Below are positions 1-60,900 of a stretch of 64,000 bases of DNA, in pieces. Origin of the DNA: a virus; IMG/VR virus record IMGVR_UViG_3300031726_000433, positions 34,722 through 98,721 of that record; one strand, 5' to 3'. The notes below the pieces were generated by a model. It searched no databases and had not been told where the DNA came from. It saw only the letters and a program-made list of their open reading frames with translations. Positions within the stretch are counted from its first letter, which is position 1; every line of letters begins with the position of its first letter. The translations under genes were made by a program, and so were the position numbers.

Positions 1-1
1 G

Positions 2-10020: not shown

Positions 10021-10034
10021 TGGAGGTTCTCTGA

Positions 10035-10688: not shown

Positions 10689-10690
10689 AC

Positions 10691-13600: not shown

Positions 13601-14050
13601 AAGAATGCTTTTACTGGAACACACCAGTTTCAAGACACTTCAATATCATTTGGAAATACGTACTTCTATAGAATAAGAGCTGTGGGAGTAGATGGAACGT
13701 TATCTGCATGGGTTTACAGAGGAATGAAAGTTGCTGAGCAACATACCGATAAGATGATAAGAGATATGTTGACACCAGATATCAAGAAGAGTTTGTCTGA
13801 TAACAAGATTCCTATGATTGTTCCTGGAATTGGCGGAAGAAGCAGAGCTGAAACGAGTCTATCATTGCAACCTCAGTTCTCTAAGCCAGCAGACATTGCA
13901 CAGGTTAGAGTTGGTGTACCTCCTCCAGTTCAGTTAACTGTACAAAATCCATCTACTCTAGCTACTTATAATTTACAGACAGTGTCTGTGAAGCCAACTG
14001 TACCGAGTTCAACAACAGTAAGAGCTCAGCTTCTAGGTCTAGGAAAGTAA
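10691..14050 (+). CDS. Large virion protein with several fibronectin-III-like domains, 1119 aa
   Basis: ATG at 10691, two bases after the previous stop. The N-terminal 200 residues are Gln, Ser and Asn-rich and probably helical. From about residue 450 onward at least four fibronectin-III-like domains can be seen by the recurrent 'Y-x-Y-R-V/I-x-A/S-V' strand G/F pattern: YMYRVYSVDVFGNKS, YQYSIYGVDVFGNET, YVYRVKAVQTGSY and YFYRIRAVGVDGT, each preceded by a W- or I-containing strand (VLNWDTSNDSG, VRLEWQDGD). FnIII arrays act as spacers or adhesive modules in phage tails. Domain type is inferred by eye. Neighbours at 14053 and 16353 carry the same kind of domain. Confidence 0.7.
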   Translation: MPLFFDRSSPGTSVNIDSDVAKRSNTTFTSARKFSAPNSEEQETKGSQVISNDEHLIEQAATLKGVAIAAEQIALVARGNLATVRDQINSTQSSQQQDSRSIAPAVMQSDVANTSDANSKNLFDYLQTRVPLLETSAIADDLHKNITETVFKNKTDVPAPSAFNQNVPQLVSITVDMAKNRGTVDCFFSHLRFNLPLSQVWNKNVKAVRIFRSTILNPTLKRGTMPVLTMRGMERLSTLKSRSRAKGGDQLGPMEIRYREAGVMTATSILNPIDPATNARISTNMYDGVIGSKDSSTTPASDTQSTQTDISSFLDASRFSGIDAGVAQNLNVLRNIKMQDPSSAHLDIPQQFTLNTAEARQKGLLNTGQVTSLASDITSQIVIDKNNTSEFREIAFMSLDKLKSTITGDVVEYDFVDESVGFGRGYSYYIVSIDHNMMESIRSQIVDVTIEGIRVPERPKRVFSYKVNNAIALNILVDDQLVEKFEIHKREADSSLIKDNSLIVRNFSDVKGFNVNASIVKRSSNMFIKAGECLNGSKGSGATFYDRDTITGRKYMYRVYSVDVFGNKSESPYEVEMFLQDSSRPNELIKPTLSAEMDAKTGKSRIVFKCTDKRVRMLFLARRDLTVGQSAFTTPSQVNMIKFGTPKSGEGSKHFEDIVLRGENKDYSWTGMFQNSLEETTFIDKTVSLDHIYQYSIYGVDVFGNETSHEISKPFMIIRRPMINAPVNLTAEVTQGPGFTVGGVRLEWQDGDNDTSSEDRLGNRASLADSSVRTLYQIERRKVGDERWEEFPMIENRILFDPAPSVGIPGKKRTFIDEPGVNRPKFRPTYIETNQTYVYRVKAVQTGSYVSNYSNYAEVFAALKISEPKNFRVRASDVKVKPFYIVLNWDTSNDSGVVDKWEIERADVNNFAAARLNLKNPSDFQTLNFKTFRTVFRESSRFRSQGMDETLVVSNQKAKVFNQTNLQSIDKNAFTGTHQFQDTSISFGNTYFYRIRAVGVDGTLSAWVYRGMKVAEQHTDKMIRDMLTPDIKKSLSDNKIPMIVPGIGGRSRAETSLSLQPQFSKPADIAQVRVGVPPPVQLTVQNPSTLATYNLQTVSVKPTVPSSTTVRAQLLGLGK

Positions 14051-14052
14051 AA

Positions 14053-29997: not shown

Positions 29998-31683
29998 ATG
30001 AACAAATCAATTCTGCGCAATGAAATCATCATGTGCGGAAAGGATCCTTGTTACTTCATACGAAAGTATGTTAAGATCAAGCATCCTGTAAGGGGGCTCA
30101 TACCCTTTACAATGTTTGACTATCAAGAAGAACTAGTTCAAGACTACGTTAAGCACCGTTTTAACGTAGTCTTAAAAGCAAGACAACTTGGTATATCTGA
30201 AGTCACTGCTGCATATGCAACGTGGCTGATGTTATTCCACAGAGAAAAGAATATCATTGTAATGGCGTCCAAGGCAGATACTGCCAAGAACATTATTCGT
30301 AAGGTTGCCACAGCTCTAAAGAAACTTCCGAAGTGGTTGATGTTGGCAGATGTTACAACCGATAATAAGTTGTCAATAGAACTAAGTAACGGATCAAGAA
30401 TAGCTGCGATTGCAACGTCAGAAGATGCAGGACGTTCAGAAGCTGTTTCATTTCTTATCATCGACGAAGCTGCATTCGTCCAAAGATTCGATGAGTTGTG
30501 GACAGGACTTTATCCTACAGTTGCTGCTGGTGGTAGAGCTGTCGTGTTGTCTACTCCAAATGGCGTAGGAAACAAATTCCATCAGATTTATTCAGAGGCA
30601 GAAGAGGGTACCAACGACTTTAAGCCTCATGTGTTTATGTGGTGGAGGCATCCTGAAAGAATCTCTGACTTAAGAGACGATCCAGATAGAAAGGGTTTCA
30701 AGACATCGACGTGGCTTGTTAATGAAATCAAAGCAGCAAACATGTCTCCAAGAGACGTCGCTCAGGAACTTGAATGCAACTTTAATGCGTCTGGTGATAC
30801 TGTCATAACGACAGAAGCAATGAATTGGTTGAGAGATGGAACGATGCAGCCAGCAGAGAGAGCTCACTGGGATAGGAATCTTTTTCGTTGGTTTCAAGCT
30901 CACGGAAAGGCAAGATACGTAATATCGGCAGACGTTGCCAGAGGCGATGGAAGAGACCACTCTGCTGCACACGTATGGGATGCTCAATCAATGTCTCAGT
31001 GCGCAGAGTATTATGGAAAGGTTCCAGTCGAAGAGTTTGCTAAAATCCTATGTGATCTTGGACATGAATACAATAATGCGTTGCTTGTTGTTGAAAATAC
31101 GTCTATAGGTTTGGCTTGTATCGAACATATAAAACTTCTCAACTATGAGAATGTGTACTTCTCTAGAAGAGGAGATCAGAGACCAGGTGAAGCTGTTAAT
31201 ATGTATTGGGGACCAAACACTGAAGATCTTGTTCCTGGGTTCACAACTTCTCAAAAGAATAGATCGTTGATGATAGCAAAGCTAGAAGAGTATATAAGAA
31301 ATAAAATCATCACGATAAGATCTGAAAGATTCACGGAAGAATTAAGAACATTCATCTGGAATAACGGTAGACCTGAAGCTATGAAAGGTTATAACGACGA
31401 CCTTATAATGGCTGCCGCCATTGGTGTCTGGATTAGAGATACGTATCTATCACCGTCCTTTGCTTCTTCAGACATACAAGGCAAATTGCTTGGTGGAATA
31501 GAGATGGATAGGACATACAATAGTCAAATAAAAGGTGCCTCGAAGGATCCTCGTGCTTCTGCAAGCAATTCTCCAGCGCAGAGGGGTAATTATAAGGGTA
31601 GTATTGGAGCGAGAGTAAGACTACCAAATGGCATAACTGAAGATTTTAGTTGGTTGGTAGATGGTATCATAAGTAAGGGGTAA
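29998..31683 (+). CDS. 17: Terminase large subunit (T4 gp17-like), 561 aa
   Basis: DNA-packaging motor ATPase and headful nuclease. The N-terminal ATPase shows the adenine-binding DYQ (Q43), a Walker A-like segment KARQLGISE (60-68), Walker B FLIIDEAAF (152-160) and the coupling motif LSTPNG. The C-terminal RNase H-like nuclease has SADVARGDGRDHS (about 312), LLVVENTSIG and the final acidic pair in GYNDDLIMAA. Length is close to that of T4 gp17 (610 aa). Walker A lacks the usual GKT/S, the lysine lying ahead of the loop, a variant known in several terminases. ATG 29998 follows the previous stop with no gap. The product should dock on the portal protein encoded at 32295. Confidence 0.93.
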   Translation: MNKSILRNEIIMCGKDPCYFIRKYVKIKHPVRGLIPFTMFDYQEELVQDYVKHRFNVVLKARQLGISEVTAAYATWLMLFHREKNIIVMASKADTAKNIIRKVATALKKLPKWLMLADVTTDNKLSIELSNGSRIAAIATSEDAGRSEAVSFLIIDEAAFVQRFDELWTGLYPTVAAGGRAVVLSTPNGVGNKFHQIYSEAEEGTNDFKPHVFMWWRHPERISDLRDDPDRKGFKTSTWLVNEIKAANMSPRDVAQELECNFNASGDTVITTEAMNWLRDGTMQPAERAHWDRNLFRWFQAHGKARYVISADVARGDGRDHSAAHVWDAQSMSQCAEYYGKVPVEEFAKILCDLGHEYNNALLVVENTSIGLACIEHIKLLNYENVYFSRRGDQRPGEAVNMYWGPNTEDLVPGFTTSQKNRSLMIAKLEEYIRNKIITIRSERFTEELRTFIWNNGRPEAMKGYNDDLIMAAAIGVWIRDTYLSPSFASSDIQGKLLGGIEMDRTYNSQIKGASKDPRASASNSPAQRGNYKGSIGARVRLPNGITEDFSWLVDGIISKG

Positions 31684-31685: not shown

Positions 31686-32291
31686 ATGTTTGTATATGGA
31701 TTGATTGACCCATTTTCAAAACAACTTCGTTACGTTGGTAAAACGGAAGTTGGAGCTTCAAGGCCTAAGGCTCACTGGACAAGTCACAAAAATAGAAATG
31801 ACCGCTGTCATACGTGGGTACGATCTATTCTAAATAAAGAATCAATTCCGGAAGTAGAAATTTTGCAAAGTTGTAATAATAGAAATGAATTAAATGACGC
31901 TGAAATGTTTTGGATTGGATATCTAAAGATGACAGGGTGCAGATTAACAAATATGACTCCTGGTGGAGATGGTGTCGCGAAAGGGAATACACCCTGGAAC
32001 AAAGGAGCGACGTACTCAAGTCCAGCTATTTCAAAAGCAAAAAGAGGAGTCAAAACACGCCCATGCTCAGACGAAGTAAAAAGAAAAATATCTGAGAGTC
32101 TCAAAGGTAGAACACACTCTGCTGAGAGAGTAGAAAAGATCGCTGCAGCTCACAGAGGAAAGAAGCAAAGCAAAGAGCAAGTTGAAAAATTTACAAAGTC
32201 AATCAGGTCCTACTGGGATAGCTCTGAATCAGCCGAACATCGTCAAATCTTATCTGACAATATGAAAAAGATGAGAGTGACAAAGGGATAA
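31686..32291 (+). CDS. GIY-YIG homing endonuclease with NUMOD3-like repeats, 201 aa
   Basis: The N-terminal 85 residues show a GIY-YIG core in variant form: FVYGL (2-6), RYVGKT (15-20), catalytic R26 in SRPKAHW and E73 in LNDAEMFW. The second half has NUMOD3-like DNA-binding segments (SDEVKRKISESLKGR, SAERVEKIAAAHRGK), basic and repetitive. It begins 2 bases after the terminase stop and ends 3 bases before the portal ATG, with AAGGGG as ribosome site. It is a free-standing homing endonuclease placed between two essential genes, likely to cut the equivalent junction in related phages. The class is well supported; the target is unknown. Confidence 0.88.
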   Translation: MFVYGLIDPFSKQLRYVGKTEVGASRPKAHWTSHKNRNDRCHTWVRSILNKESIPEVEILQSCNNRNELNDAEMFWIGYLKMTGCRLTNMTPGGDGVAKGNTPWNKGATYSSPAISKAKRGVKTRPCSDEVKRKISESLKGRTHSAERVEKIAAAHRGKKQSKEQVEKFTKSIRSYWDSSESAEHRQILSDNMKKMRVTKG

Positions 32292-32294: not shown

Positions 32295-34160
32295 ATGCCA
32301 GATCTAATTCAAAACAAAGAAAGCGTTTGGAAGAGACTTACAAGACTTTTTAGAAGTGGTCCTGTAGTTCGTCACAAGATTGCGTCTGGTGAAAAGTTTG
32401 CTGAACCCGAAGGAACAGCACAGGCATACAAGAGAGAACTATCACATCTTTATGTTCACTCATTAGCTTCATATGGACAGTATGAAAGAATGTCAAGATA
32501 TGCAGACTATAGTGAGATGGAATTCACACCAGAAATCGCATCAGCTCTTGACATTTATTCAGATGAAACAACGACATACAATGAAAAGGGTGGAATTCTA
32601 GAAGTTAATAGCAAGAATGCTGAGATAAAGCAAGTTCTTGAAACGTTGTTTTATGACGTTTTAAATATCGAATTTAATATCTGGAGCTGGACGCGTAACC
32701 TCTGCAAGTACGGTGACTTCCTTTTGTTCGTTGATGCAAATGAGACGAACGGAATTCTTAACCTTCTACCAATTCCAATCAACGAAATTGAAAGAGAAGA
32801 GGGATATGATAAACAGGATCCATTTGCCGTTCGTTTCCGCTGGCTAACTCAGGGAAACTCGATTCTTGAAAATTGGCAAATCGTCCATTTTAGACTTCTT
32901 GGAAATGATAGCTTCCTTCCATATGGTCAAAGCATCATAGAACCAGCTCGACGCATCTGGAGACAGTTGATTCTCATTGAGGATGCCATGTTGGTTTACC
33001 GCATTGTTCGTTCTCCTGAACGTAGAGTGTTCTACATTGACGTTGGAAACGTTGCTCCTGATCAAATTGACACATTCATGGAGCAGATCAAGACTAGACT
33101 GCGTAGAAATCAGATCATTGATCCTACAACTGGAAGAGTCGATCTTCGCTACAATCCTTTGTCTGTTGATGAAGACTACTTCATTCCTATTCGTGGAGAG
33201 AAGAGTTCAAAGATTGAAAATCTTCCAGGTGGACAGTTTACTGGAGATATCGAAGACGTTCAATACATTCAGAACAAGTTGTTCGCAGCACTCAAGGTTC
33301 CCAAGGCGTATCTTGGATATGAGTCTGATTTGGGTTCAAAGGCAACTCTTGCTCAGCAGGACGTAAGATTTGCAAGAACAATCGAAAGAATTCAGAAGAT
33401 ACTTGTTGCCGAATTGAATAAGATTGCAATCATTCACCTATTCCTTCTAGGTTACAACGGAACTGATTTAGCAGACTTCGAACTTAAGTTAGCAACATCT
33501 TCAACTGTTCATGAGCAGCAGAAATTGGAGTTGTGGAGAATGAGATTCGAAATCGCTTCAGCTGCAACCGAAGGCGTTCTCGATCGTGAATCAATATACA
33601 AGAAGATCTTTAGTCTATCTGATGAAGAGATTGAAAAGGTTCGTGAAGGAAAGAAGCTTGATAAACTAGAAGATCTTGTACTTGAACAAATGCAAGCACC
33701 TCCTCAGCCAGGAGAAGCAGAAGCTCCAGCTGCAGAACCAGTCTCTGGAGAAGAGAATCTTCCAGATACTCTAGGCGGCGAAGCTCAAGCGGAGACTCCG
33801 CCAGCTGAAACGCCTCCTGAAACGACTCCAGAATCAGTTATCCATGAAGAAGAGGAAATGGAATTAGAAAAGAAGAACATGGGAAGTACAGGAAACGACG
33901 CGTCAAGGGGTGACGGAAAAGGAAAGGATCTTTTCTCTACTGGAGAAGATCTACACCAGATGGTTTTCGGAACGAAGAAGCAGACAGGATCTGACCCTAA
34001 TGATTTTAGATCGTTGCGAAGATTGGTGACACGTCCGTTCTCAGAAGTTAAAACAAAAGAAGAAAAAGCACTAAATGAACAACTTGAAAGAGATTCCAAG
34101 AGAATAAATGAAATAGATAAAGATCTTAAATCTTTACTTAGAACGCTTAAGAAACGCTAA
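32295..34160 (+). CDS. 20: Portal protein (T4 gp20-like), 621 aa
   Basis: Forms the ring at the special head vertex through which DNA enters. The T4-type portal pattern is clear: EFTPEIASALDIYSDE near residue 75, the AMLVYRIVRSPERRVFYIDVG wing/stem region (about 235-255), SKIENLPGGQ, and LKVPKAYLGYE in the clip region (about 335). The C terminus is unusual for its Pro/Glu/Ala-rich, acidic linker (about 470-530) followed by a charged helical end; T4 gp20 is shorter (524 aa). ATG 32295 is separated from the terminase only by the homing endonuclease gene. Confidence 0.93.
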   Translation: MPDLIQNKESVWKRLTRLFRSGPVVRHKIASGEKFAEPEGTAQAYKRELSHLYVHSLASYGQYERMSRYADYSEMEFTPEIASALDIYSDETTTYNEKGGILEVNSKNAEIKQVLETLFYDVLNIEFNIWSWTRNLCKYGDFLLFVDANETNGILNLLPIPINEIEREEGYDKQDPFAVRFRWLTQGNSILENWQIVHFRLLGNDSFLPYGQSIIEPARRIWRQLILIEDAMLVYRIVRSPERRVFYIDVGNVAPDQIDTFMEQIKTRLRRNQIIDPTTGRVDLRYNPLSVDEDYFIPIRGEKSSKIENLPGGQFTGDIEDVQYIQNKLFAALKVPKAYLGYESDLGSKATLAQQDVRFARTIERIQKILVAELNKIAIIHLFLLGYNGTDLADFELKLATSSTVHEQQKLELWRMRFEIASAATEGVLDRESIYKKIFSLSDEEIEKVREGKKLDKLEDLVLEQMQAPPQPGEAEAPAAEPVSGEENLPDTLGGEAQAETPPAETPPETTPESVIHEEEEMELEKKNMGSTGNDASRGDGKGKDLFSTGEDLHQMVFGTKKQTGSDPNDFRSLRRLVTRPFSEVKTKEEKALNEQLERDSKRINEIDKDLKSLLRTLKKR

Positions 34161-36610: not shown

Positions 36611-36927
36611 TGAATCCATGGAAACTTGCAGAAGCTAAAATTGAAGAAGGCGATGTCGTCGACTTTCAAAAAGCAAAGTCAAAGAAGTCACAAACACCTC
36701 CTGCACCTCCAACAGGTGGCACGTCAAGTGGAAGCTGCGCTACGGCAGTTAAACAGTTGATGGGCGGCAGAGCAGGTGGGCTTGTCGATAAGAACATGCT
36801 TCAATCATTAAAGCAACTCGCCACAGGGCTTGACAGTCTTGCAGGTGCATCTGACAATGGTAAAATGCTGCAAAAGTCATGGTCTGCATTCATAGGTGAA
36901 CTCGCCGAGGCCGTCAATTCACAATGA
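36610..36927 (+). CDS. Hypothetical small head-module protein, 105 aa
   Basis: Starts at ATG 36610, overlapping the previous TAA by one base. It has a Lys/Pro/Gly-rich linker (about residues 22-45) followed by a helical region (about 48-103). No known domain. Placed between portal and protease genes, where T4 encodes small prohead-core proteins, so a core or scaffold role is possible. Overlaps the next gene by ATGA, implying coupled translation. Confidence 0.55.
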   Translation: MNPWKLAEAKIEEGDVVDFQKAKSKKSQTPPAPPTGGTSSGSCATAVKQLMGGRAGGLVDKNMLQSLKQLATGLDSLAGASDNGKMLQKSWSAFIGELAEAVNSQ

Positions 36928-37094
36928 GTGCCTGGGATATTCTTCAGAAAAAGATTGATGAAGCTTTCATAAGAGATCTTGTTAAGAGATATATCAAGGA
37001 ACAAGAAATAAAAGAGTCTCCAGTTGGTGGTGGAGCAGCTGAAGACGGAGAAGGTGGAGCTCCTGTTGAAACTGAAGTAGAGGAAACATACTAA
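36924..37094 (+). CDS. Very small acidic protein before protease, 56 aa
   Basis: ATG 36924 overlaps the previous TGA (ATGA), and its TAA overlaps the protease ATG by one base (TAATG), so coupling at both ends supports a real gene. The N-terminal 30 residues form a likely amphipathic helix (WDILQKKIDEAFIRDLVKRY); the rest is Gly- and Glu-rich. T4 gp67, a small acidic prohead-core protein, has a similar position and charge, but sequence likeness is too weak to name it. Confidence 0.6.
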   Translation: MSAWDILQKKIDEAFIRDLVKRYIKEQEIKESPVGGGAAEDGEGGAPVETEVEETY

Positions 37095-37690
37095 TGGAAA
37101 AGAAACAGATCCTTAGAGAATGGCTGCAACTTGACTACAAGCCTGAAGTCATTAAGGAGTCTCGTGAGAAGAATGGTGGAAAGATTATTCTCAAGGGAAT
37201 CATCCAGAAAGCTGATACCAAGAATCAGAATAAGAGAATTTATCCAAGAGATATTCTTGATCGTGAGATTGAGAATTACCAGAAGGCTGTTCGTGAGAAT
37301 AGAGCCGTTGGTGAACTTGATCATCCAGAAACATCCTCTGTTTCGCTTAAGAATGTTTCTCATATTATTAGAGAAATGTGGTGGGATGGCAGTGATGTCT
37401 GTGGAAAGGTTGAAGTTCTTCCAACCCCACAAGGAAAGATCCTTGAGCAGCTTCTCGAAAGTGGAGTTATGATTGGTATTTCAAGTCGTGGCGTTGGCTC
37501 TACCGAACAGACAAACGAAGGAACAAATGTTGTTCAACAGGACTTCCAGATCATTTGCTTCGACATTGTTTCGGAACCATCTACTCCGGGAGCATATCTA
37601 TTTGGAGAAAGCAAGAAGATTGAAACAGATGTAAGATTCGAAAAGGCAGATAGGATCTACAGAGCTCTAAATGATATCGTGAGGAAGTAA
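37094..37690 (+). CDS. 21: Prohead core protease (T4 gp21-like), 198 aa
   Basis: Serine protease that matures the prohead by cleaving scaffold and capsid proteins. Family motifs visible: NKRIYPRDIL (47-55), catalytic His in GELDHPE (H77), WWDGSDVCGKVEVL (96-109) and catalytic Ser in GISSRGVGS (S130/S131), then FDIVSEPSTPGAYLF. Length matches T4 gp21 (about 212 aa). ATG 37094 overlaps the upstream stop. Placement ahead of scaffold (39756) and capsid (40957) matches T4 order, with four small genes between. Confidence 0.92.
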   Translation: MEKKQILREWLQLDYKPEVIKESREKNGGKIILKGIIQKADTKNQNKRIYPRDILDREIENYQKAVRENRAVGELDHPETSSVSLKNVSHIIREMWWDGSDVCGKVEVLPTPQGKILEQLLESGVMIGISSRGVGSTEQTNEGTNVVQQDFQIICFDIVSEPSTPGAYLFGESKKIETDVRFEKADRIYRALNDIVRK

Positions 37691-37734
37691 AGTGAAGACT
37701 CTTAAAGAAATCTTTGTTCTAAGGGTAGGTTAAA

Positions 37735-38289
37735 ATGAAAGTCAAAGCAAACGATCTTTTTGAAGTTGTTCGTCAAGTTGTTAGAGACGAGCTTAAAAAA
37801 GCTTTACCCGAAATGATTCAGAGACATTTGACAGAAGGTTATCTGAAGAAGATGGTTGCAGAAACTGTCAAGACAAATAAGAAAAACGTTTCAGAGCTTC
37901 TGACAGTTGTTGATAATACAGATGAAGAAGCAATTCCAGAACCGCAGCAAAATTCAGATAAGGGAATTTACAACAATAGCGACGACATGTTAAAGAAGGA
38001 AAGCGTAGCTTCTAGAATTATGTCAAAGAAAAAGAATCCTCTTCTATCAAGTGAAAATCCACTTTCATTTGTATATGAGAATGTAAAGATTCCCGGTGAA
38101 GATGAAGTGGCACCATCTGTACCACTTGATAATATCATGCCAGATTTTTCAAAGATGAATTCAATATTGGAAGCAACAGGAACAACAAGTAGAAAGCCAA
38201 TGCAACAATCTCCCGAAGCAAAGATGAGAGAGTTAGAACAACGTAGAAAGGCTTTAGACGTTCCAATCCAAGGAAATATTTATAAATGA
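37735..38289 (+). CDS. Hypothetical head-module protein, 184 aa
   Basis: The N-terminal 60 residues form a charged helix (ANDLFEVVRQVVRDELKKAL); the rest is polar and probably disordered, with a short ordered stretch NPLSFVYENVKIPGED (about residues 106-121). Unrecognised. Lies between protease and scaffold genes and may be a core or minor capsid protein. ATG 37735, with AGGGTAGG upstream as a weak ribosome site. Its stop overlaps the next start (ATGA). Confidence 0.55.
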   Translation: MKVKANDLFEVVRQVVRDELKKALPEMIQRHLTEGYLKKMVAETVKTNKKNVSELLTVVDNTDEEAIPEPQQNSDKGIYNNSDDMLKKESVASRIMSKKKNPLLSSENPLSFVYENVKIPGEDEVAPSVPLDNIMPDFSKMNSILEATGTTSRKPMQQSPEAKMRELEQRRKALDVPIQGNIYK

Positions 38290-39005
38290 AAGTAAGTCGT
38301 CTACTTGAAATACTTCTTGAGTTTGACCGTCTCGGATTCGGCGGACACCCAGATGACTCTGGAATCAGAGGTAAAGGCGCAAACCGTAAGCCAGATCGTA
38401 GACTTCAAAATTTTCCATACGACAGAGATATATTTTACGGTCAACCAACTGCATATGATCGAGGATCAAGTGCGACTGGCCCTTTGAGTAAACCACTGAC
38501 GCCAAAAGATGATCTTCACTATTCTCTTAAACTTCTTGGAATAGAATTACCAGATGAAGTTGAAGAAGCAATGGGAACTCCAACAAACTTTGGAATAAGT
38601 GGTAAGAGTAATATGGGAAGCACAGTCCCTGGAGTTGGATCTGGATGGGCCACAAACCCTCCACGAAGCTGGGATAAGAGTGACATTGATGATGAGATGG
38701 ACGAAGGTCCCTTGAATATCGACACCAGTCCTCCCGAGACTGAAGAGATTCCATCAATGCAAGCTCCAGATTTTAGATTTCAGACAGATGATGATCTAGA
38801 AACTAGACTTAATAGAATCTGGGGAAAGGATAGCAACATGAATTTTGTTAATCCTAAAGATTTTGCAAACCCTGATTTTCATTTGATTAATAAGGATCCG
38901 CTTGGTCAAATCATGGCGCATTTGACAAACAGGGGAACTTTTGGACTTATGCCAAAAGAATCTGCATGGGATAGAGTTACTGGGCAGTCAAGAAATAAAA
39001 GATAA
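38286..39005 (+). CDS. Hypothetical head-module protein, 239 aa
   Basis: Starts at ATG 38286 in an ATGA overlap with the previous gene. The product is Gly, Asp and Pro-rich and mostly polar, with few predicted strands or helices; the middle is acidic (about residues 135-180). No domain recognised. By position it is a head accessory or core protein. No signal peptide or membrane segment. Confidence 0.5.
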   Translation: MKVSRLLEILLEFDRLGFGGHPDDSGIRGKGANRKPDRRLQNFPYDRDIFYGQPTAYDRGSSATGPLSKPLTPKDDLHYSLKLLGIELPDEVEEAMGTPTNFGISGKSNMGSTVPGVGSGWATNPPRSWDKSDIDDEMDEGPLNIDTSPPETEEIPSMQAPDFRFQTDDDLETRLNRIWGKDSNMNFVNPKDFANPDFHLINKDPLGQIMAHLTNRGTFGLMPKESAWDRVTGQSRNKR

Positions 39006-39031
39006 AATTCTAACAAAGATTGTCTGTAATT

Positions 39032-39038
39032 CTATTTA
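39032..39038 (+). promoter_or_regulatory. Candidate late-promoter motif CTATTTA
   Basis: CTATTTA followed by ACGAAGAGG lies 16 bases before ATG 39055. It matches the recurrent core; function inferred. Confidence 0.35.
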
Positions 39039-39054
39039 ACGAAGAGGCAACGAG

Positions 39055-39462
39055 ATGAAAACATCACTTTATGAAATCAAGAAGCTAGTTTCAGAGGTTC
39101 TACTTTCTGAGGCGAAGAAGAAGAAAGAGAAGGCTGAGAAGCTTAAGTATGCCGCTAAGCCAGGTGCTTATAGCTACGATGAGTCATTTGATTTCTCTGC
39201 TGCTCTTGGTGCATACAATCTTTATAGAAGTCAAGGTGCTACAAACTGGGGCCCAATGACTGGTCCTGGAACAAAGATTGACGATCGCATTCTTGGACAG
39301 AGAGCTTCTTCAGAAGCTGCTCTTAGAGGTGTAGTAAAGGAAGCTATCAGAGAACAAGTAAAGGGAAATCCATCTCCCTGGGTGAAGGCAAATCAAATGG
39401 TTGAGCAGAAGCTATCAGAAAATGTCTGGGAAGCGGCTCTTCAAGTATTGGGGAAAAAGTGA
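39055..39462 (+). CDS. Hypothetical head-module protein, 135 aa
   Basis: Lys-rich N-terminal helix (SEAKKKKEKAEKLKYA, residues about 19-34), then an aromatic/Gly middle (SFDFSAALGAYNLYRSQGATNW) and a C-terminal helix. No known domain. It is translated just ahead of the bS21 homologue, whose GTG overlaps its stop. Structural role inferred from context. Confidence 0.55.
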   Translation: MKTSLYEIKKLVSEVLLSEAKKKKEKAEKLKYAAKPGAYSYDESFDFSAALGAYNLYRSQGATNWGPMTGPGTKIDDRILGQRASSEAALRGVVKEAIREQVKGNPSPWVKANQMVEQKLSENVWEAALQVLGKK

Positions 39463-39686
39463 CAAAGAATTCTAAACGAGATTCATTGACTGTATCATTC
39501 GCTAAAGGCGAAGATCCGGAGCAGCTAATAAGAAGATTCACGAAGAAGGTAAGGAATAGTGGTCTTGTTCAAGATCTTCTTCAACGTAGATTTTATGAAA
39601 AGCCTTCAATAAAAAGAAAGAAGAAACATATCAGGGCCATTCATTCTCTAAGAAGTGAAGATCTAGAGAGCGAAAAAGAAGATTGA
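39459..39686 (+). CDS. rpsU: Ribosomal protein bS21 homologue, 75 aa
   Basis: The stretch VSFAKGEDPEQLIRRFTKK, then NSGLVQDLLQRRFYEKPSIK, follows the bS21 pattern (ExxxxALRRFKR ... GVLxEVRRREFYEKP), and RRFYEKP (43-49) is the hallmark. Length is close to that of E. coli bS21 (71 aa), and the basic C terminus is present. bS21 helps the 30S subunit select mRNAs through the anti-Shine-Dalgarno region; phage copies are known and are thought to steer ribosomes to phage messages. GTG 39459 overlaps the previous stop (GTGA) and has GGGG at 39450-39453. It sits inside the late head module, just before the scaffold gene. Identity is well supported; function in infection is inferred. Confidence 0.85.
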   Translation: MTKNSKRDSLTVSFAKGEDPEQLIRRFTKKVRNSGLVQDLLQRRFYEKPSIKRKKKHIRAIHSLRSEDLESEKED

Positions 39687-39690
39687 AAAA

Positions 39691-39711
39691 AAATTTTCCG
39701 GCAGAAAATTT
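39691..39711 (+). other. A/T-rich perfect hairpin between bS21 and scaffold genes
   Basis: AAATTTTC, loop CGGCA, GAAAATTT: an 8-bp perfect stem preceded by a run of A. There is no U-tract after it, so it is not a typical terminator on this strand. It could be a processing or mRNA-stability element. Confidence 0.4.
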
Positions 39712-39720
39712 ATTGGCCAT

Positions 39721-39731
39721 TTACTTAGAAG
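39721..39731 (+). promoter_or_regulatory. Promoter-like motif TTACTTAGAAG
   Basis: TTAGAAG at 39725-39731 matches the downstream half of the recurrent motif, 24 bases before the scaffold ATG 39756. The CTA core is imperfect (preceded by TTAC). Inferred. Confidence 0.3.
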
Positions 39732-39755
39732 TTAGAATCATTCAGGAGAATTAGA

Positions 39756-40916
39756 ATGAAAGAAGGAAGAGATTTAGTTAACGAAGCCGTAAATGATGCC
39801 AAGGCATTGAAGGAAGCTGCCTTGACTGCTGCAAAAAATGAGCTCCTGGATTCCATGGCACCTGCCATCAAGGAGCTTCTCGAAAAGAGCATTGGAAACG
39901 TCTTGGGTGAGAAGAGAGGCCTAACAGGACGAATTGGACAATCCCAAAGGGGAGATCATTTCAGTCCTCAAGCCCAGAAGTGGGAAGAGGATGCAGATAA
40001 AGGAGAAGCACAAATGGATAAGGAAGCACCAAAGAAGGATGATCAGGAACTCGATCTTGAGTCACTAGCAAGCTTTTTCCCAGCAATGTCTGAGGAACCA
40101 GAGGCTGTTCCTGGAGAAGAAGTCAAGGTGGAAGATCCGGGTGCTATGATGTCCGGAATCCCTACTCTCGGCGAAGCTGAAGAAGAGGAAGGAGAGGAAG
40201 TAAAGGAAGGAAAGAAGAAGAAGGAAGGCGAAGAAGAGGAAGAGGAGGAAGAAAAGATGGAAGAGACAATCGAGATCTCTGAGTCAGAACTCAAGAAGGT
40301 CTATGAGGCTGCTCTTGCAACTGAAGCTTCTGTTAAGAAGGGATTTGGTGATATGACCAAGGCAGGTGAGCTTGATCAGGTTGTTAAGGACACAGGCAAG
40401 GGTCTAAACCCAGAGAAGAAGGGCGAGAAGATGTGGGGAGAGAAGCCTGACTCTGAACTAGAGGCTCAGCAAGATTTCACTGTCAAGGAGATGATCCAGA
40501 AGGGAATGGCTGAAAATAAGTCTCTTCGTGAGAATCTTAAGAAGGCAGTTGACATCATCCGTACTCTTGGTGCTCGCCTCCACGAAGTCAACCTTTTCAA
40601 TGCAAAGGTTCTTCATGTTAATAGCGTGCTTAACAAGCACAATCGTCTAACTGCTGAACAGAAGCAGGTCGTTCTTGAGTCAATCGACAAGGCCAAGACC
40701 ATTGACGAAGTCAAGATGGTTTATGAAGCCATCACAAACAGCTTTGCAGCAGCAGGAAAGCTTACTGAGTCTAAAACTAATAAGCCAACTGCCAATGCAC
40801 AACGCGCTCGCTCTTCAGGAGCAGCGAACCAGAAGGTCCTCAGCGAATCTGTGGATCGCAACCAAAACGAAGGCTTCTCAAGGCTACAACAGCTTGCGGG
40901 TCTCGTAAGTAAGTAA
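39756..40916 (+). CDS. 22: Prohead scaffold/core protein (T4 gp22-like), 386 aa
   Basis: Highly charged, Glu/Lys-rich helical protein directly upstream of the major capsid gene and downstream of the protease, as gp22 is in T4. An acidic low-complexity run (Glu-rich, nt about 40180-40260) precedes a conserved-looking C-terminal helix region (SLRENLKKAVDIIRTLGARL, NVLNK-like VNSVLNKHNRL, LTAEQKQVVLESIDKA). Scaffold proteins of this type fill the prohead and are cleaved by the gp21 protease. ATG 39756 has AGGAG at 39744-39748. The assignment rests on position and character more than residue identity. Confidence 0.8.
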   Translation: MKEGRDLVNEAVNDAKALKEAALTAAKNELLDSMAPAIKELLEKSIGNVLGEKRGLTGRIGQSQRGDHFSPQAQKWEEDADKGEAQMDKEAPKKDDQELDLESLASFFPAMSEEPEAVPGEEVKVEDPGAMMSGIPTLGEAEEEEGEEVKEGKKKKEGEEEEEEEEKMEETIEISESELKKVYEAALATEASVKKGFGDMTKAGELDQVVKDTGKGLNPEKKGEKMWGEKPDSELEAQQDFTVKEMIQKGMAENKSLRENLKKAVDIIRTLGARLHEVNLFNAKVLHVNSVLNKHNRLTAEQKQVVLESIDKAKTIDEVKMVYEAITNSFAAAGKLTESKTNKPTANAQRARSSGAANQKVLSESVDRNQNEGFSRLQQLAGLVSK

Positions 40917-40956
40917 CGTCCACAACAGCCTATAAGGCAAAAGGAGAATCGTAAAA

Positions 40957-42636
40957 ATGGATTTAAATTCGATCATGACTGAGGGGATCACACAAGTTGA
41001 TCGTCAGAAGGAGACGACAAAGCTTGTTGGAAAGTGGGATAGGACAGGACTCCTAAAGGGTCTTCAGGATTCCAAGACGAACCCAATCAAGTCAAACATG
41101 GCTCGCCTCTTGGAAAACCAAGCTGGCCAGCTTCTTAGAGAATCTACTTCAACTGGAGATATTCAAGGGTTCCAGAACGTAGCATTCCCTATCGTACGTA
41201 GAGTGTTCGCTGGCTTGATTGCAAACGAACTCGTCTCCGTTCAGCCAATGAGCCTTCCATCTGGATTGCTCTTCTATCTAGATTACAGATATGACACAGT
41301 AAAGGCAGGTGATAAGGCGAAGGACTTCGCAGCGGGCGGTTCGTTGTTTGGCGATCGTAACTCACTCCAGGATTCTCAGGGCGCAGGTTCGTTGTACAAC
41401 CTTGCAACCTCATTCTCCCAGCGTGAAAAGATTGCAACTGGTTCATTCTCTGGTTCTCTTGCTACGGCATCTCTATCAGACATCAACTGGGATCCAGAAC
41501 TCTCTGCAAGCATTGGTGCCGGTACACTTAAGGCATTCACTGTTACGAACGCATGGTCTGGTGTTGGATCACTCGGTGGCGCAATGACAGATACTGCTTC
41601 TCTTAAGCAGTGGGTCGTTGTTTCTGGTTCGTCAACTGTTTCTTCTGCAAGCACTGACGGTACTCCAGTACGCCTTGGTCTAGCAACCGTTGTTCGTCGT
41701 CACACTCGCAAGAGCGGAAACGACATCGTATTCATCCTTGATACTACGGATGGATTCCCAACTGCGATGGAAGCATGCAAGGTTTCATACCTTGTCGGTG
41801 CAACCCTCACTGGTGGAACTTCTGGTACTCTTACATCTCCAGACTTTGAATCTGACCTTGGTGCATCTCCAATGCCAGTTATTCCAGAGTTGGATATCAG
41901 AATCGAATCACAGGCCGTTACAGCATCAAGCCGCAAGCTACGCGCAAAGTGGACTCCTGAACTAGCGCAGGACCTCGCAGCTTACCAGAACTTGGACGCA
42001 GAAGTTGAGCTTACTCAGGTTCTTTCTGAGGCAATCGCCCTAGAAATCGACCGTGAAATTCTTGCGGACCTTCTCTACGGAGCAACCGGAGCTAACTACT
42101 TCTGGTCACGTATGCCAGGTAAGTTCCTTGATAAGACCAACGGTAACACTGTGTCGGGTGCTTCATTCACTGGTACGGTTCGTGAATGGTACGAAACCTT
42201 GATCGAAACGATCATCGACGTTGCCAACACAATCCACAGAAAGACACTACGTGGTGCTGCTAACTTCGTGGTTACTTCTCCAGACGTTGCAACTATTCTT
42301 GAGGCTTCAGTCCTCTACAAGCCAGTCCTTTCGATGGATCCACAGGAGACCATGTTCTCCGTTGGAACCGAGAAGGTCGGTACGTTGAACAGCCGCTTCA
42401 CGGTCTACAAGGATCCATACTTCCCAAGAAACAGAATCTTGGTTGGTTACAAGGGATCAAGCTTCTTGGAAACTGGATTCGTATATGCTCCTTACGTTCC
42501 ATTGATTGTAACTCCAACAATCTATGCTCCAGAAGACTTCACTCCACGTAAGGGTGTTATGACCAGGTACGCCAAAAAAATGGTCAGGTCAGATTTTTAC
42601 GGGACGGTCACCGTAATGGACATGAATGTAATCTAA
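40957..42636 (+). CDS. 23: Major capsid protein (T4 gp23-like), 559 aa
   Basis: Forms the hexamers of the head shell. T4-type gp23 features: N-terminal helical pro-region (MARLLENQAGQLL) ending near residue 65, then FQNVAFPIVRRVFAGLIANEL and VQPMSLPSGLLFYLDYRY, and in the C-terminal half ELTQVLSEAIALEIDREIL, TLRGAANFVVTSPDVA and the final FTPRKGVMTRYAKKMVR. The N-terminal part should be removed by the gp21-type protease. Length compares with 521 aa in T4. ATG 40957 has AGGAG at 40942-40946. A strong terminator follows. No gp24 vertex paralogue is in the window. Confidence 0.95.
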   Translation: MDLNSIMTEGITQVDRQKETTKLVGKWDRTGLLKGLQDSKTNPIKSNMARLLENQAGQLLRESTSTGDIQGFQNVAFPIVRRVFAGLIANELVSVQPMSLPSGLLFYLDYRYDTVKAGDKAKDFAAGGSLFGDRNSLQDSQGAGSLYNLATSFSQREKIATGSFSGSLATASLSDINWDPELSASIGAGTLKAFTVTNAWSGVGSLGGAMTDTASLKQWVVVSGSSTVSSASTDGTPVRLGLATVVRRHTRKSGNDIVFILDTTDGFPTAMEACKVSYLVGATLTGGTSGTLTSPDFESDLGASPMPVIPELDIRIESQAVTASSRKLRAKWTPELAQDLAAYQNLDAEVELTQVLSEAIALEIDREILADLLYGATGANYFWSRMPGKFLDKTNGNTVSGASFTGTVREWYETLIETIIDVANTIHRKTLRGAANFVVTSPDVATILEASVLYKPVLSMDPQETMFSVGTEKVGTLNSRFTVYKDPYFPRNRILVGYKGSSFLETGFVYAPYVPLIVTPTIYAPEDFTPRKGVMTRYAKKMVRSDFYGTVTVMDMNVI

Positions 42637-42657
42637 GTTCGTAGCTAGAAAAATGAT

Positions 42658-42691
42658 AAAGGCTCCCGTGAGTTTCCGGGAGCCTTTTTTA
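42658..42691 (+). terminator. Rho-independent terminator after the capsid gene
   Basis: AAAGGCTCCCG paired with CGGGAGCCTTT (11 bp; loop 42669-42676), followed by a T-run (42685-42690). It ends the head operon behind the major capsid gene. Confidence 0.92.
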
Positions 42692-42734
42692 TTTCATTTA
42701 ATGACTTTCCATAGAAGAAAGTATAGTTATTTTT

Positions 42735-43259
42735 ATGGAAAATAAAATCAATGAATGCTTAGAGTGTAAAGAACAAACTTCCGAAATAGCTTATCACGTG
42801 AAAGTTATTCACAAGATGAGTTACAACAATTACGTTTCAAAACATAACCTTCCTAGAGTATGTCATTGTGGAAAAGAGTTATCGATCCCGAAGAACACGA
42901 AGGTCGAATCTGGCCGCGGCGGCGGAAGAACTCGCCAACACTGTTCACCACTTTGTAATCAACATGCAAATACTTGGTGGAGAGTCTATGGTCTTGAGCC
43001 AAGTGACTATTGGGATACTTTAGAAAAACAGAATGGCGTTTGCGCCATTTGTCATCAACCACCAGAAGATGGAGATAGACAATTTGCAGTAGATCATGAG
43101 CATGTCGACGGATATGAGAATATGACTCCAGAAGAAAAGAAAAAGTATTTCAGAGGTTTGCTCTGCATCGTTTGTAACAGGTTCAGACTTGCAAAAATTG
43201 ATCTTGAAATTGCTCGCAAGATTGTCTCATATCTCGAGTCGTACCATTCTAAGATATAA
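42735..43259 (+). CDS. Endonuclease VII-type HNH homing endonuclease, 174 aa
   Basis: The C-terminal half has the treble-clef ββα-metal fold of T4 endonuclease VII: C103-x2-C106, D120-H121-x-H123 (FAVDHEHVDG), RGLLC (C144), C147 and N148. The N-terminal part carries further zinc-binding sites (C8-C11 with H21 and H26; C43, C45, C70, C74), probably for DNA recognition. True Endo VII resolvases lack such an N terminus, and a RuvC-like enzyme already exists at 23284, so a free-standing homing endonuclease is likelier. It sits alone just after the capsid-gene terminator, a usual site for such insertions. Confidence 0.82.
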   Translation: MENKINECLECKEQTSEIAYHVKVIHKMSYNNYVSKHNLPRVCHCGKELSIPKNTKVESGRGGGRTRQHCSPLCNQHANTWWRVYGLEPSDYWDTLEKQNGVCAICHQPPEDGDRQFAVDHEHVDGYENMTPEEKKKYFRGLLCIVCNRFRLAKIDLEIARKIVSYLESYHSKI

Positions 43260-54545: not shown

Positions 54546-54917
54546 ATGCCACTAGACATCCACATAATAGATCCAGGAACTGGAAATACAGCCAAGGTTA
54601 CAGATGGAGCCGTTCATGTAACTGGATCTGTAGTAACAGAGACGTGTCCCACATATGGATCATCAAGCTTAGCATATGCAACTTCTTCAAGTATTGCTCT
54701 TTTAGCTGCGAAAACAAGAGCTGGATTTTCTATTTATAATCATTCAATGGGTGTTTTGTATATCAAAATGGGAACAACAGTTTCGACTTCTTCATTTTCA
54801 GTAGCACTAGTTCCAAATGCATTCTATGAGTCTCAGAATGCATACTCAGGACAGGTATCTGGAATTTGGGAACCACCTTTGACAGGGAGCGCTCAGGTAA
54901 CTGAGTTTACTTGCTAA
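54546..54917 (+). CDS. Small virion protein, paralogue of the gene at 53238, 123 aa
   Basis: ATG 54546 with AAAAGG just ahead. The C-terminal 75 residues (AGFSIYNHSMGVLYIKMGTT, FSVALVPNAFYES, YSGQVSGIWEPP, AQVTEFT) align with the gene at 53238, sharing the final TEFT. Duplicate members of one beta-sandwich family in the fibre cassette. Its stop overlaps the repeat-fibre ATG (TAATG), implying coupled translation and perhaps a shared structure. Confidence 0.6.
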   Translation: MPLDIHIIDPGTGNTAKVTDGAVHVTGSVVTETCPTYGSSSLAYATSSSIALLAAKTRAGFSIYNHSMGVLYIKMGTTVSTSSFSVALVPNAFYESQNAYSGQVSGIWEPPLTGSAQVTEFTC

Positions 54918-57900
54918 TGCCATTATACTCTCCTGGACAACAGATTTCAATAAACCTTTCACAGACAGTGAATGGTGTAGCTTCTATTTCTGCAGGAACT
55001 GGTGGAGTAACAGGTCCCGCTGTTTCATTTGCAGATTCAAATGGTGTTTCGTTCGGAATAGTTACTGACTCGAATGGAGGAACCATCACTGCTTCCGCAG
55101 CTGGAGGAATAGGTGGATCTGGAAATAAGATTGCGGCAGGCACACAGACTGCTAATGGAACTGCCACTGTAGTATTCTCGAATAGCAACGGTTTGACGTT
55201 TGGTATGTCGAATCAGTCTGTCATTACAGCCTCATATACTCAGTCAACTCATTCACACTCGACAGCTCCAGCGGCCATCGGAGCAGGAACGACAAGAGGT
55301 ACGGCTGGAACGATTTCATTCTCAAATAGTAATAACATCACGTTTGGAATGAATGGAAATACAATTACGGCATCTGCTTCATATTCTCAATCAACCGCAC
55401 CAGGTGCTTTAGCTGCAGCTGGTTCAACGTTAACGAATGGAACGGCTGTATTTTCTAACTCTAACAATATAAGTTTCGGTCTAAATGGAAGCACGATCAC
55501 GGCTTCTGCTTCATACAGTCAATCTACGTCTCCTGGAGCAATAGCGGCAGGCACACAGACTGGAACATCTGGGACTGTGGTGTTCGCTGACTCAAATGGA
55601 ATAGCATTTGGTATGTCTGGTTCTAGCCAGATAACAGCTTCATACACTCAATCTACTCACTCACACTCAACAGCTCCAGCTGCAGTATCTGCAGGAACAA
55701 CATTGGCTACAAGTGGAACGATTTCATTTGCCGATGGAAACAATGTTTCATTTGGAATGGATGCTGGAACAATTACAGCTTCTGCATCATATAGTCAATC
55801 AACCCATTCACATTCTACAGCTCCAGGAGCTATAGCTGCAGGAACGCAGACTGCAACTTCTGGAACTATAGTCTTCGCAGATTCAAATGGGTTATCGTTT
55901 GGACTATCTGGTTCAAGTCAGATAACAGCATCTTACACTCAGTCTACACACTCTCATTCTACGGCTCCTGGAGCAATCGCAGCCGGAACAACGAATGCTA
56001 CGAGTGGGACAGTATCATTTGCAAATTCAAACGGTCTTGCGTTTGGCATGAATGCTGGAACGATAACTGGTTCTTACACTGTCCCAACACAGTCAGTACA
56101 GTCATACAATGTAAATGCGGCTGGTACACAGACCGCTAATACTACTGGAACTGTAGTGTTTAGTAATTCAAACAATATATCGTTTGGAATGACTAACAAT
56201 TCTATAATAACAGCGTCTGCTTCTTACTCACAGTCAACTGCGCCGGGTGGATTGGCTGCAGGAACTCAAACGGCAACGTCTGGTACAGTGGTGTTCGTCA
56301 ACTCAAATGATTTTACATTTGGTATGACGAACAGTTCTCAGATCACGGCTTCATTTTCTCAGTCAACACACTCACATTCGACAGCCCCTGCCGCTATAGC
56401 TGCTGGTGGGTCAACTGCGACGAATGGTACTATCGTTCTTTCTAACTCGAACAATGTATCATTTGGATTCAACGGTTCAACTATAACAGCGTCAGCTTCG
56501 TATAGTCAGTCTACATCACCGGCTGGCTTCGCAGTAAATGCATCCACTGAGACAAACGGAACAATCGTCTTCACGAATAGCAACAATGTTTCGTTCGGAT
56601 TCAATGGATCAACTGTCACTGCCTCTGCTTCATTCCCTGCTCAGACTGCTCAATCAGCTATCAGAGGTCTTGGCGTAAGCAACACTGGAACCACAGCTGG
56701 AAACACTGGAGTGTCGACCGGAGTCGATTGGGTAATTGCCGGCAGTGGTAACATTACAGCATCGCAGTCGACAGCTGCAGGTGGTCCGAACACAATCTGG
56801 TTGTCAGTACCAGCAGCTGGAGCATTTGGTGGAGTGGCAGCAGGTGGTTCCACTGAGACGAATGGCACAGTTGTATTCTCGAACTCAAATAACGTTAGCT
56901 TCGGATTCAATGGTTCTACGATAACAGCGACAGCTTCTTACTCTCAGTCTACTGCTCCAGCAGCAATTGCAGCAGCTGGTTCTACAACCACGAATGGAAC
57001 TGTCGTATTCTCGAACTCGAATAACGTTTCATTCGGAATGAATGGAAGCGTTATAACAGCAACTGTAACGATGACTCCAGGAGCCGGAGACGGATTCAAT
57101 AATATCGCAGCAGGTACTCAGACGGCAGGAACTTCTGGAACAGTTGCATTTTTGAATTCTAATAATGTGACATTTGGCATGACTAACAGCTCTCAAGTCA
57201 CAGCTTCATTCTCTTATAGTCAATCAACGGCTCCATCTGGTATCGCTGCATCAAATGCTTCTACCGTAACTAACGGTGTCGTCCAGTTCGCGAATGGAAA
57301 TAACGTAACATTCGGACTGAACGGTTCTACTATCACTGCTTCAGCTTCATACAGTCAATCTACACAACCAACGATCAAGGGTCTTGGTGCTTCCAATACT
57401 GGAAACACAGCTGGAAATACTGGAACATTCACTGGTGTAGACTGGGCTATAGCAGGATCTGGCGGAATTACAGCTTCTGGTTCTACCACGAACGCAACAG
57501 GTCCTCATACTCTATGGTTGTCAGTTCCAACAGGAGCTTCTGCGACAGGAAATCTTGGCGGAGTTGCTGGATCTGGAGCATCAACTGTAACGGGCGGGAC
57601 TGTTCAATTTGGAAATGCAAATGGTGTGTCATTCGGTCTAAACGGATCGACGATGACTGCTTCTTATACTCAGTCTACATCTCCTTCTGGCATTGCAGCA
57701 TCAAATGCTTCCACTGTCACGAATGGCACTGTACAATTCGCAAATGGAAATAACATAACATTCGGATTGAATGGAAGCACGATTACAGCATCGGCCTCTT
57801 ACTCACAGTCAACTGCACCAGGCGGATTTGCAGTCAACGCTTCCACAGAGACAAATGGCACGATCGTCTTCACCAACTCTAATAACGTAAGCTTCGGATT

Positions 57901-60900
57901 TAACGGTTCGACGGTGACGGCTTCAGCATCATTTGCTCAAACTAATCAATCTGCAATTAAGGGATTCGGTATTTCTAATACAGGAACAACTGCTGGAACA
58001 TCTGGCATGTTTACTGGTGTAGATTGGGTCCTTGCAGCTTCTGGAAACATTACGGCTTCTGGCTCTACAACGAATGCTACTGGTCCTCATACTCTATGGT
58101 TGTCAGTACCTGCACAATCAACTGTACCAGCTGCAGTTGCTGTAAACGGTTCAACTGTAACAAACGGAACTGTCGTATTCTCCAATAGCAACGGTGTTTC
58201 ATTCGGAATGAATGGATCTACTATCACCGTTACAGTTACTCCAGGTGCCGCTGCTGGAATCGCAGCTCAAGCAGCAGGAACTCAAACTGCAACGTCTGGA
58301 ACTGTAGTTTTTGCTAACTCTAACAACTTCACATTCGGGATGAGTGGAAGTTCTCAGATTACAGCATCATTCTCTGAATCTACTCACGGTCATACTTTCA
58401 ATCAGCTTGCAGCAGGTACTCAGACAGCTGCAAATGGAAGTACGGTTGTATTTTCAAATAGTAATAACTTTACATTCGGAATGACAAATAGCAGCATCAT
58501 TACTGCTTCATTCTCAGAATCTACTCACGGACACACGTTTAATCAATTGGCGGCTGGTACACAGACTGGCGCTAATTCAAGTACCGTAGTCTTCTCGAAC
58601 AGTAACAATGTAACGTTCGGCATGACAAATAGTTCTATTATTACAGCGTCCTTCTCATACACACAGTCTACTTCTCCAGCAGCACTTGCAGTTAATGCCG
58701 CAGGGTCTATAACTGGTGGTACAGCGGTCTTCTCAAACTCTAACAACGTGACGTTCGGTCTGAACGGTTCTACTGTAACTGCCTCAGCTTCATTTGCTGC
58801 CCAGACAACACAATCTGCAATCAAGGGTTTAGGTGTTTCAAATACAGGTACAACAGCTGGTAACACTGGAGTCTTTACTGGCGTAGACTGGGCAATCGCA
58901 GCGTCAGGAAATATCACAGCATCTGGTTCTACCACCAACGCGACTGGTCCTCACACACTCTGGCTTTCAGTTCCAGCTCAATCAACTGTTCCAGCTGGCT
59001 TTGCAGTTAACGCTTCGACCGAGACAAATGGAACCATTGTCTTTACAAATAGTAACAACGTTTCATTCGGTTTCAATGGATCTACCGTAACAGCTTCAGC
59101 TACATTCGCCCAAACAGCTCAGTCTGCGATTAGAGGTCTTGGAGTTTCTAACACTGGAAACACAGCTGGAAACACTGGTGTTTCAACAGGAATAGATTGG
59201 GTTATTGCTGGTTCGAATAACATAACTGTCTCACAGTCGACAGCTGTAGGTGGTCCGAATACGATTTGGATCAACCAGACTGGAGGCGGAGGCGCTGGCG
59301 ACGGGTACAATATTCTTGCAGCTGGTACTCAGACAGCAAATACGACAGGAACAGTTGTCTTTGTAAATAGTAATAACTTCACGTTCGGAATGTCTAATAA
59401 CTCTCAGATCACAGCTTCATTCTCTGAGTCAACGCACGGACATACATTCAACCAGGTCGCTGCAGGAACTCAAACTGGTGCAAATGGAAGTACTGTAGTC
59501 TTCTCGAACTCCAACAACGTGTCCTTTGGAATGACGAACAGCTCTATTGTTACTGCTTCGTTCTCATACACACAGTCTACGTCACCAGCTGGTATCGCAG
59601 GTTCTGGCGCATCGACCGTAACAAATGGAACAATTCAGTTTGCAAATTTGAACGGCATCTCGTTTGGACTAAATGGTAGTACCATGACAGCTTCTGTATT
59701 TCCACATGCTCATGCGGCAGGTGGAGTTACATTTACTGGTACTTCTGGTACAGTTGTATTCTCGAACTCAAATAACGTTTCATTCGGATTGGGCGGTGCT
59801 GGTAGCACCATAATGACAGCTTCTGCTTCGTTTGCTCAGACGACGCAGTCTGCAATTAGAGGTCTAGGTGTTTCTAATACTGGAACGACTGCTGGTAACA
59901 CTGGTATATCAACAGGTGTAGATTGGGTAATTGCAGGATCTGGAAATATTACAGCCTCACAATCTACCGCTGTTGGTGGACCAAATACAATTTGGTTGTC
60001 CGTCCCAACTGGCGGTGGTGGAGGTGCTGCAATTTCAGCCGCTGGTGGTTCTCAATCTACTGGAACTGTTATATTTTCTAACTCAAACGGTATATCGTTT
60101 GGATACAACGCTGGAACGATAACTGCTACAGTAACTCCAGGTGCCGCTGCTGGAATCGCCGCTATGGGTGCTGGAACACAGACAGTGACATCTGGAACAA
60201 TAATATTCGCTGACTCAAATGGAATTGCATTCGGTCTATCTGGCTCAAGTCAGATAACGGCATCATACAATGATGTAGATTTTAACTTTGCAGTTCCAGG
60301 AACAACTCTTGCGTCAAATGCTGGCGGCTCAATTGTATTCTCAAACTCAAACGGTGTTTCTTTCGGAATAAACGGTTCAACGATAACTGCGTCTGTAAAC
60401 GGATTCACGGCGTCAACTGCTCAAAATAGACAATTGGGAGCATCAACCACAATCGCCCCAGGACAAAGCAGTTTGTGGTTATCTCCAATTAGACTTCCAA
60501 ATCCTCTATCTGCTTCAACGATGATGATCATTCAGAGCTTTTCTGGCACAATAACATCTGCTGCAACTGCACAATTTGGACAGAGTTTGTTGATGGCTCT
60601 CTATTCTCAGAATGCAACCAATACTTCTAGATTCGATACATACTGGACTGGAGCAAAGAGCATGACGTTCTGGAACAGCGGAACTTCAAGTTACTCTTAT
60701 AGCTACGATACTTTTAGCAGTTCTAGCGCAGGAAGCAACATCGGAACTGCAAGCATCATGGGATTGAGAATGCACAACTTCACAATAGGATCAATAATTC
60801 CAGCTGGTTTGTATCTGGCTGCGTTTCTTCCAATAACATCTTCTGCTGGATATTCTGCTGCAATGTCAAGAGCTGTTATGGTATACGACGCACCAATTCC

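What the first reader, a model, noticed from the sequence alone, without database searches (positions are those of the whole stretch)
39459..39686. Phage-encoded ribosomal protein bS21 inside the head operon
The RRFYEKP hallmark, the length and the basic C terminus identify bS21. Phage bS21 genes are known, but here the gene is wedged between late head genes and coupled to an upstream structural gene (GTGA overlap). That suggests translation control timed to virion production. The virion genes mostly have strong Shine-Dalgarno sites, the very interaction bS21 tunes.
Basis: partly seen in the sequence, partly recalled or inferred. Interest (0 to 1): 0.72.

Follow-up and report, generated by a model that had tools for sequence, protein, structure and literature searches.

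The report
Phage ribosomal protein bS21 in head operon
A large tailed phage carries its own copy of the small ribosomal protein bS21 among its capsid genes, a real but already known arrangement that probably lets the phage alter the host's ribosomes while it is making virions.

Summary
Window 39459-39686 (+) encodes a 75-aa bS21: Pfam Ribosomal_S21 E=1.2e-14, 54 bits against a cut-off of 27. It lies between the S77 prohead protease and the scaffold-like and gp23 capsid genes of a T4-like head module, overlapping the upstream gene by GTGA. The contig is a 98.7-kb virus record.

The arrangement is ordinary for this lineage. In all 21 contigs picked only by capsid similarity (43-47% identity) that span protease to capsid gene, a bS21 gene lies between them on the same strand. 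A cultured Microcystis phage, Mel-JY01, has annotated RpsU in the same slot. Chen et al. 2022 reported bS21 beside head genes and its late expression; Mizuno et al. 2019 showed that a phage bS21 enters 70S ribosomes.

Corrections: the extreme C terminus is acidic (net -4), not basic; the GTGA overlap is one of several in this compact operon. Shine-Dalgarno sites are indeed enriched (63% against 15% at internal ATGs).

A small subclade including the window has an aromatic residue where Bacteroidia bS21 has the Tyr54 that occludes the anti-Shine-Dalgarno: curious in an SD-using phage, but untested. Host not determined. New member of a known kind.

The parts
39459..39686 (+). bS21 (rpsU-like) gene, 75 aa, GTG start
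   Evidence: PF01165 E=1.2e-14, PHROG 21469, PDB bS21 chains, helical model resembling bS21 but with weak fold-search scores
39459..39462 (+). GTGA overlap of the upstream stop codon and the bS21 start codon
   Evidence: sequence and junction check
39055..39462 (+). upstream gene, 135 aa, unassigned; homologue in L002 at the same place
   Evidence: ORF; no family match; BLAST match in L002
37094..37690 (+). prohead protease (Peptidase_S77, gp21-like)
   Evidence: PF03420 E=6.5e-34
39756..40916 (+). scaffold-like gene, assigned by position and acidic, lysine-rich composition
   Evidence: no significant family match; position just before gp23; homologues in relatives
40957..42636 (+). major capsid protein gp23
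   Evidence: PF07068 E=5e-80
42658..42687 (+). terminator-like hairpin after the capsid gene, 11 pairs
   Evidence: consensus scan; not evidence of function by itself
32295..34160 (+). portal protein gp20
   Evidence: PF07230 E=1.8e-73
29998..31683 (+). terminase large subunit
   Evidence: PF03237 E=1.9e-16

Best explanation
The gene is a genuine phage copy of ribosomal protein bS21, a long-standing resident of the head gene block of a large lineage of T4-like aquatic myoviruses. It is probably co-transcribed with the capsid genes and made late. The protein then most likely binds 30S subunits in place of the host bS21, next to the anti-Shine-Dalgarno, and keeps or biases initiation on the phage's SD-bearing late messages. 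Shown here: identity, location, synteny across relatives, purifying selection in near relatives, SD enrichment. Inferred: co-transcription, exchange into host ribosomes, translational bias.
For: bS21 profile match; bS21 between protease and capsid gene on the same strand in 21 of 21 capsid-picked contigs; same slot in cultured phage Mel-JY01; dN/dS about 0.07-0.14 in three near relatives; SD enrichment; HTVC008M bS21 incorporated into 70S ribosomes (PMC6375957); late expression of bS21 with capsid genes in other phages (PMC9723584).
Against: Ribosomes with HTVC008M bS21 were about 5% active in E. coli in vitro translation (PMC6375957), so exchange could inhibit rather than redirect. The acidic tail of this copy is unlike its relatives. 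No expression data for this phage. No late promoter was identified. Some related phages do without bS21.
Confidence: 0.68

Rival explanations
1. The phage bS21 adjusts anti-Shine-Dalgarno access rather than merely replacing the host copy. An aromatic residue (His62) in the C-terminal helix sits where Tyr54 of Bacteroidia bS21 stacks on A1534, so the phage copy would change how far the ribosome uses SD pairing.
For: Ungapped alignment of His62 to Tyr54 of 7JIL bS21; Phe, His or Tyr at this position in the nearest phage relatives and mostly Arg, Lys or Ala elsewhere; the Y54A mutation changes SD use in F. johnsoniae (PMC9976891).
Against: The window and its relatives use SD sites, so occluding the anti-SD would seem harmful; Verrucomicrobiota copies also have Phe there; host and its 16S tail unknown.
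Confidence: 0.12
2. The phage bS21 poisons host translation: ribosomes carrying it are poor at initiating host messages, and the phage gains by shutting down the host rather than by favouring its own messages.
For: HTVC008M bS21 left E. coli ribosomes about 5% active in vitro (PMC6375957).
Against: Made with the capsid genes, when the phage itself needs translation (operon position); the in vitro result was in a foreign host and the authors offer incompatibility as a cause.
Confidence: 0.1
3. The protein is a virion or prohead component or an RNA-binding protein without ribosomal function, which would explain why it sits among head genes.
For: Strict placement between protease and capsid genes; acidic tail unlike ribosomal copies.
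Against: The core keeps the bS21 signature and the full profile, and another phage bS21 enters ribosomes (PMC6375957).
Confidence: 0.05
4. A chance or recently captured host gene without function.
For: None found beyond general plausibility.
Against: Conserved synteny in 21 of 21, purifying selection in near relatives, and grouping with phage rather than cell sequences (weak support).
Confidence: 0.03

Closest known systems
Microcystis phage Mel-JY01 (PP395634.1) rpsU in head module
   Same: Annotated RpsU between prohead protease and capsid gene, same strand, T4-like head block
   Different: Capsid protein only 37% identical; no 4-nt overlap at the bS21 start; two extra genes between bS21 and the last gene before the capsid gene
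Uncultured phage contig L002 (IMGVR_UViG_3300037468_000662)
   Same: Nearly gene-for-gene the same head block with the same GTGA junction
   Different: bS21 51% identical in the core, Phe instead of His at the Tyr54 position, basic tail
bS21 phages of Chen et al. 2022 (PMC9723584)
   Same: bS21 beside terminase, portal, protease and capsid genes; aromatic residue at the Tyr54 position; myoviruses
   Different: There bS21 is on the opposite strand and hosts are predicted Bacteroidetes; here it is on the same strand, inside the head block, and the phage uses SD sites
Pelagibacter phage HTVC008M bS21 (PMC6375957)
   Same: Phage-encoded bS21 in a myovirus, shown to enter 70S ribosomes
   Different: Gene lies between a CobS-like gene and hypothetical and Hsp20 genes, not in the head block; falls among cellular-type copies in the tree

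Membership tests
Ribosomal protein bS21 (PF01165) | Profile match above the curated cut-off | tested here: met
   54.2 bits against 27, E=1.2e-14, profile positions 2-52 of 55
Ribosomal protein bS21 (PF01165) | Helical fold as seen on the 30S subunit | tested here: inconclusive
   Model helices 20-34, 36-46, 51-74, mean pLDDT 81, pTM 0.43; bS21 chains are the top Foldseek hits but with E 0.2 or worse
Ribosomal protein bS21 (PF01165) | Association with 30S subunits | not testable with these tools
   Needs ribosome purification and mass spectrometry
Phage bS21 of T4-like head modules | Located between S77 protease and gp23 capsid gene on the same strand | tested here: met
Phage bS21 of T4-like head modules | Late expression together with capsid genes | not testable with these tools
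   No transcript data for this contig; measured for other phages in PMC9723584
Bacteroidetes-phage bS21 clades of Chen et al. 2022 | bS21 on the strand opposite to the head genes | tested here: not met
   All genes of the block are on the + strand
Bacteroidetes-phage bS21 clades of Chen et al. 2022 | Aromatic residue at the Tyr54 position | tested here: met
   His62; the paper lists Tyr, His and Phe
Bacteroidetes-phage bS21 clades of Chen et al. 2022 | Bacteroidetes host | tested here: inconclusive
   Host not resolved; SD use speaks against a Bacteroidia host

The most novel reading that the evidence does not exclude
A subclade of SD-using T4-like phages (window, L002, L122, L123, L127, L129) carries a bS21 with an aromatic residue at the position that occludes the anti-Shine-Dalgarno in Bacteroidia. 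It might tune SD use of host ribosomes during capsid synthesis, for example by opening or closing anti-SD access depending on the residue.
Probability: 0.1. Interest if true: 0.6.

Novelty: new member of a known kind. Interest (0 to 1): 0.25.

Why it matters
Phage bS21 is the commonest viral ribosomal protein, and whether it retunes host ribosomes is still open. The strict placement between protease and capsid genes in this lineage strengthens the link to late virion production, and the aromatic subclade offers a one-residue test of anti-Shine-Dalgarno control. The single gene itself adds little to what has been published.

Tried and rejected
Host prediction: the genome scan returned a mixture of Desulfuromonadales, Nitrospirota, Acidobacteriota, Gemmatimonadota and Bacillota at 34-54% identity (its search pattern requires YEKPS and so is biased against Bacteroidia), and the tree of 64 columns groups the window weakly (87/69) with phage copies only; rejected as uninformative. 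A first alignment was too loose for the genome scan. T4-type late promoter TATAAATA: 5 matches, all on the minus strand, against 1.95 expected, so not used. Hairpin between bS21 and the scaffold-like gene: no better than shuffles, z=0.43. GTGA overlap as a special feature: three 4-nt overlaps plus 1-nt overlaps occur among the head genes, so not special. Aromatic residue as proof of a Bacteroidota host: rejected because the phage uses SD and Verrucomicrobiota copies also have Phe there. Several automatic +12 residue calls are out of register (for example L085, L091, L100, L312), so the counts there are rough; only the hand-checked window subclade was used. Fold search gave bS21 chains on top but no significant E-value. 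A first attempt to hand in this report failed its schema check.

Full report
What was checked. The window is positions 34722-98721 of a 98,721-base virus record. The open reading frame at 39459-39686 on the + strand starts with GTG and encodes 75 residues. It matches Pfam Ribosomal_S21 with E=1.2e-14 and 54.2 bits against a cut-off of 27, over profile positions 2-52 of 55, PHROG 21469 'ribosomal protein S21', and bS21 chains in the PDB down to E=1.6e-9. It is the only bS21 match in the record.

Surroundings. The gene block runs TerL 29998, portal gp20 32295, S77 prohead protease 37094, three unassigned genes, bS21 39459, a scaffold-like gene 39756 and the gp23 capsid gene 40957. The upstream gene 39055-39462 has no family match; calling it structural rests on position. 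The same GTGA is present in relative L002, and ATGA overlaps in L009 and L049, but L282-L287 and L290 have short gaps instead. Other head genes in the window overlap in the same way, so the overlap reflects a compact operon. A consensus scan of 36900-42800 finds as many terminator-like sites as shuffles give; the one strong site on the + strand follows the capsid gene at 42658-42687.

Relatives. Eighty viral contigs were picked by capsid similarity at 43-47% identity. A profile built from bS21 sequences found a bS21 gene between the protease and the capsid gene, on the same strand, in every contig that spans both: 22 of 22, of which one (L002) had been picked by bS21, leaving 21 of 21 without that bias. 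These are the best-scoring capsid relatives, so they represent one lineage. Among records of named or cultured phages, Microcystis phage Mel-JY01 has annotated RpsU in this slot, an uncultured 484-kb phage has a match about 2 kb before its capsid gene, and Flavobacterium phage immuto and Rhodothermus phage RM378 have none. HTVC008M carries bS21 outside the head block. Among three near relatives dN/dS is about 0.07-0.14, so the protein is under purifying selection there; the window itself is too divergent to test directly.

The C-terminal 13 residues are acidic, net -4, whereas the corresponding tails in five relatives are +2 to +9; the basic stretch is internal. The SD statement holds: 63% of 54 predicted starts have good pairing against 15% of 367 internal ATGs. 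Location in the head block is the rule in this lineage. Chen et al. 2022 (PMC9723584) already reported bS21 beside terminase, portal, protease and capsid genes and its late expression, though on the opposite strand. Mizuno et al. 2019 (PMC6375957) showed incorporation of HTVC008M bS21 into 70S ribosomes, and also that such ribosomes were nearly inactive in vitro.

A curious residue. The PDB search aligns window residues 11-62 with residues 3-54 of Flavobacterium johnsoniae bS21 (7JIL; E=0.011), which puts His62 on Tyr54, the residue that helps sequester the anti-Shine-Dalgarno in Bacteroidia. The nearest phage relatives have Phe, His or Tyr there, while most others have Arg, Lys or Ala. Chen et al. 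found the same aromatic class in their Bacteroidetes phages. Here the phage uses SD sites, so the meaning is unclear. Two Verrucomicrobiota copies also have Phe, so I do not use it to name a host.

Mechanism. Most likely the protein is made late with the capsid proteins, exchanges with host bS21 on 30S subunits, and supports or biases initiation on phage messages. Identity, place, conservation and SD enrichment are shown here; co-transcription, exchange and bias are inferred from the literature on other phages.

Host. Not determined. Phylogeny of a 75-residue protein gives mostly unresolved forks, and the window falls among phage copies.

Verdict. A real and well-placed phage bS21, ordinary for its lineage, with one small feature worth an experiment.

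Noticed in passing
L357 (record positions 1-18000, outside the window): tmRNA at 1044-1414, nine tRNAs at 1423-5581: The same virus record encodes a tmRNA (Rfam RF00023, 114 bits; predicted tag VNDNVEVPAWMISANAAALQAAA) and nine tRNAs, so bS21 is one of several translation genes of this phage. tmRNAs have been reported in huge phages (PMC7162821).
   Followed up: partly
window 54911-61063: A 2050-aa ORF made of degenerate repeats (for example 'SNSNNVSFGMNGSTITASASYSQSTAP'), probably a tail fibre or other repetitive virion protein.
   Followed up: no
window 31686-32291 and 42735-43259: Probable homing-type endonuclease genes inserted in the head block: an ORF that looks GIY-YIG-like by eye between TerL and portal (family not tested), and an endonuclease VII-family ORF (PF02945, E=4.7e-14) after the capsid gene.
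   Followed up: partly
L357 7309 to L358 about 8506 (record about 7.3-26.5 kb, outside the window): A long run of ORFs that look by eye like glycosyltransferases, NAD-dependent epimerases, methyltransferases and nucleotide-sugar enzymes; families not tested.
   Followed up: no
L202 (Acidiferrobacteraceae MAG contig PBOB01000007.1): Its bS21 groups with phage copies, so this MAG contig may itself be a phage.
   Followed up: no
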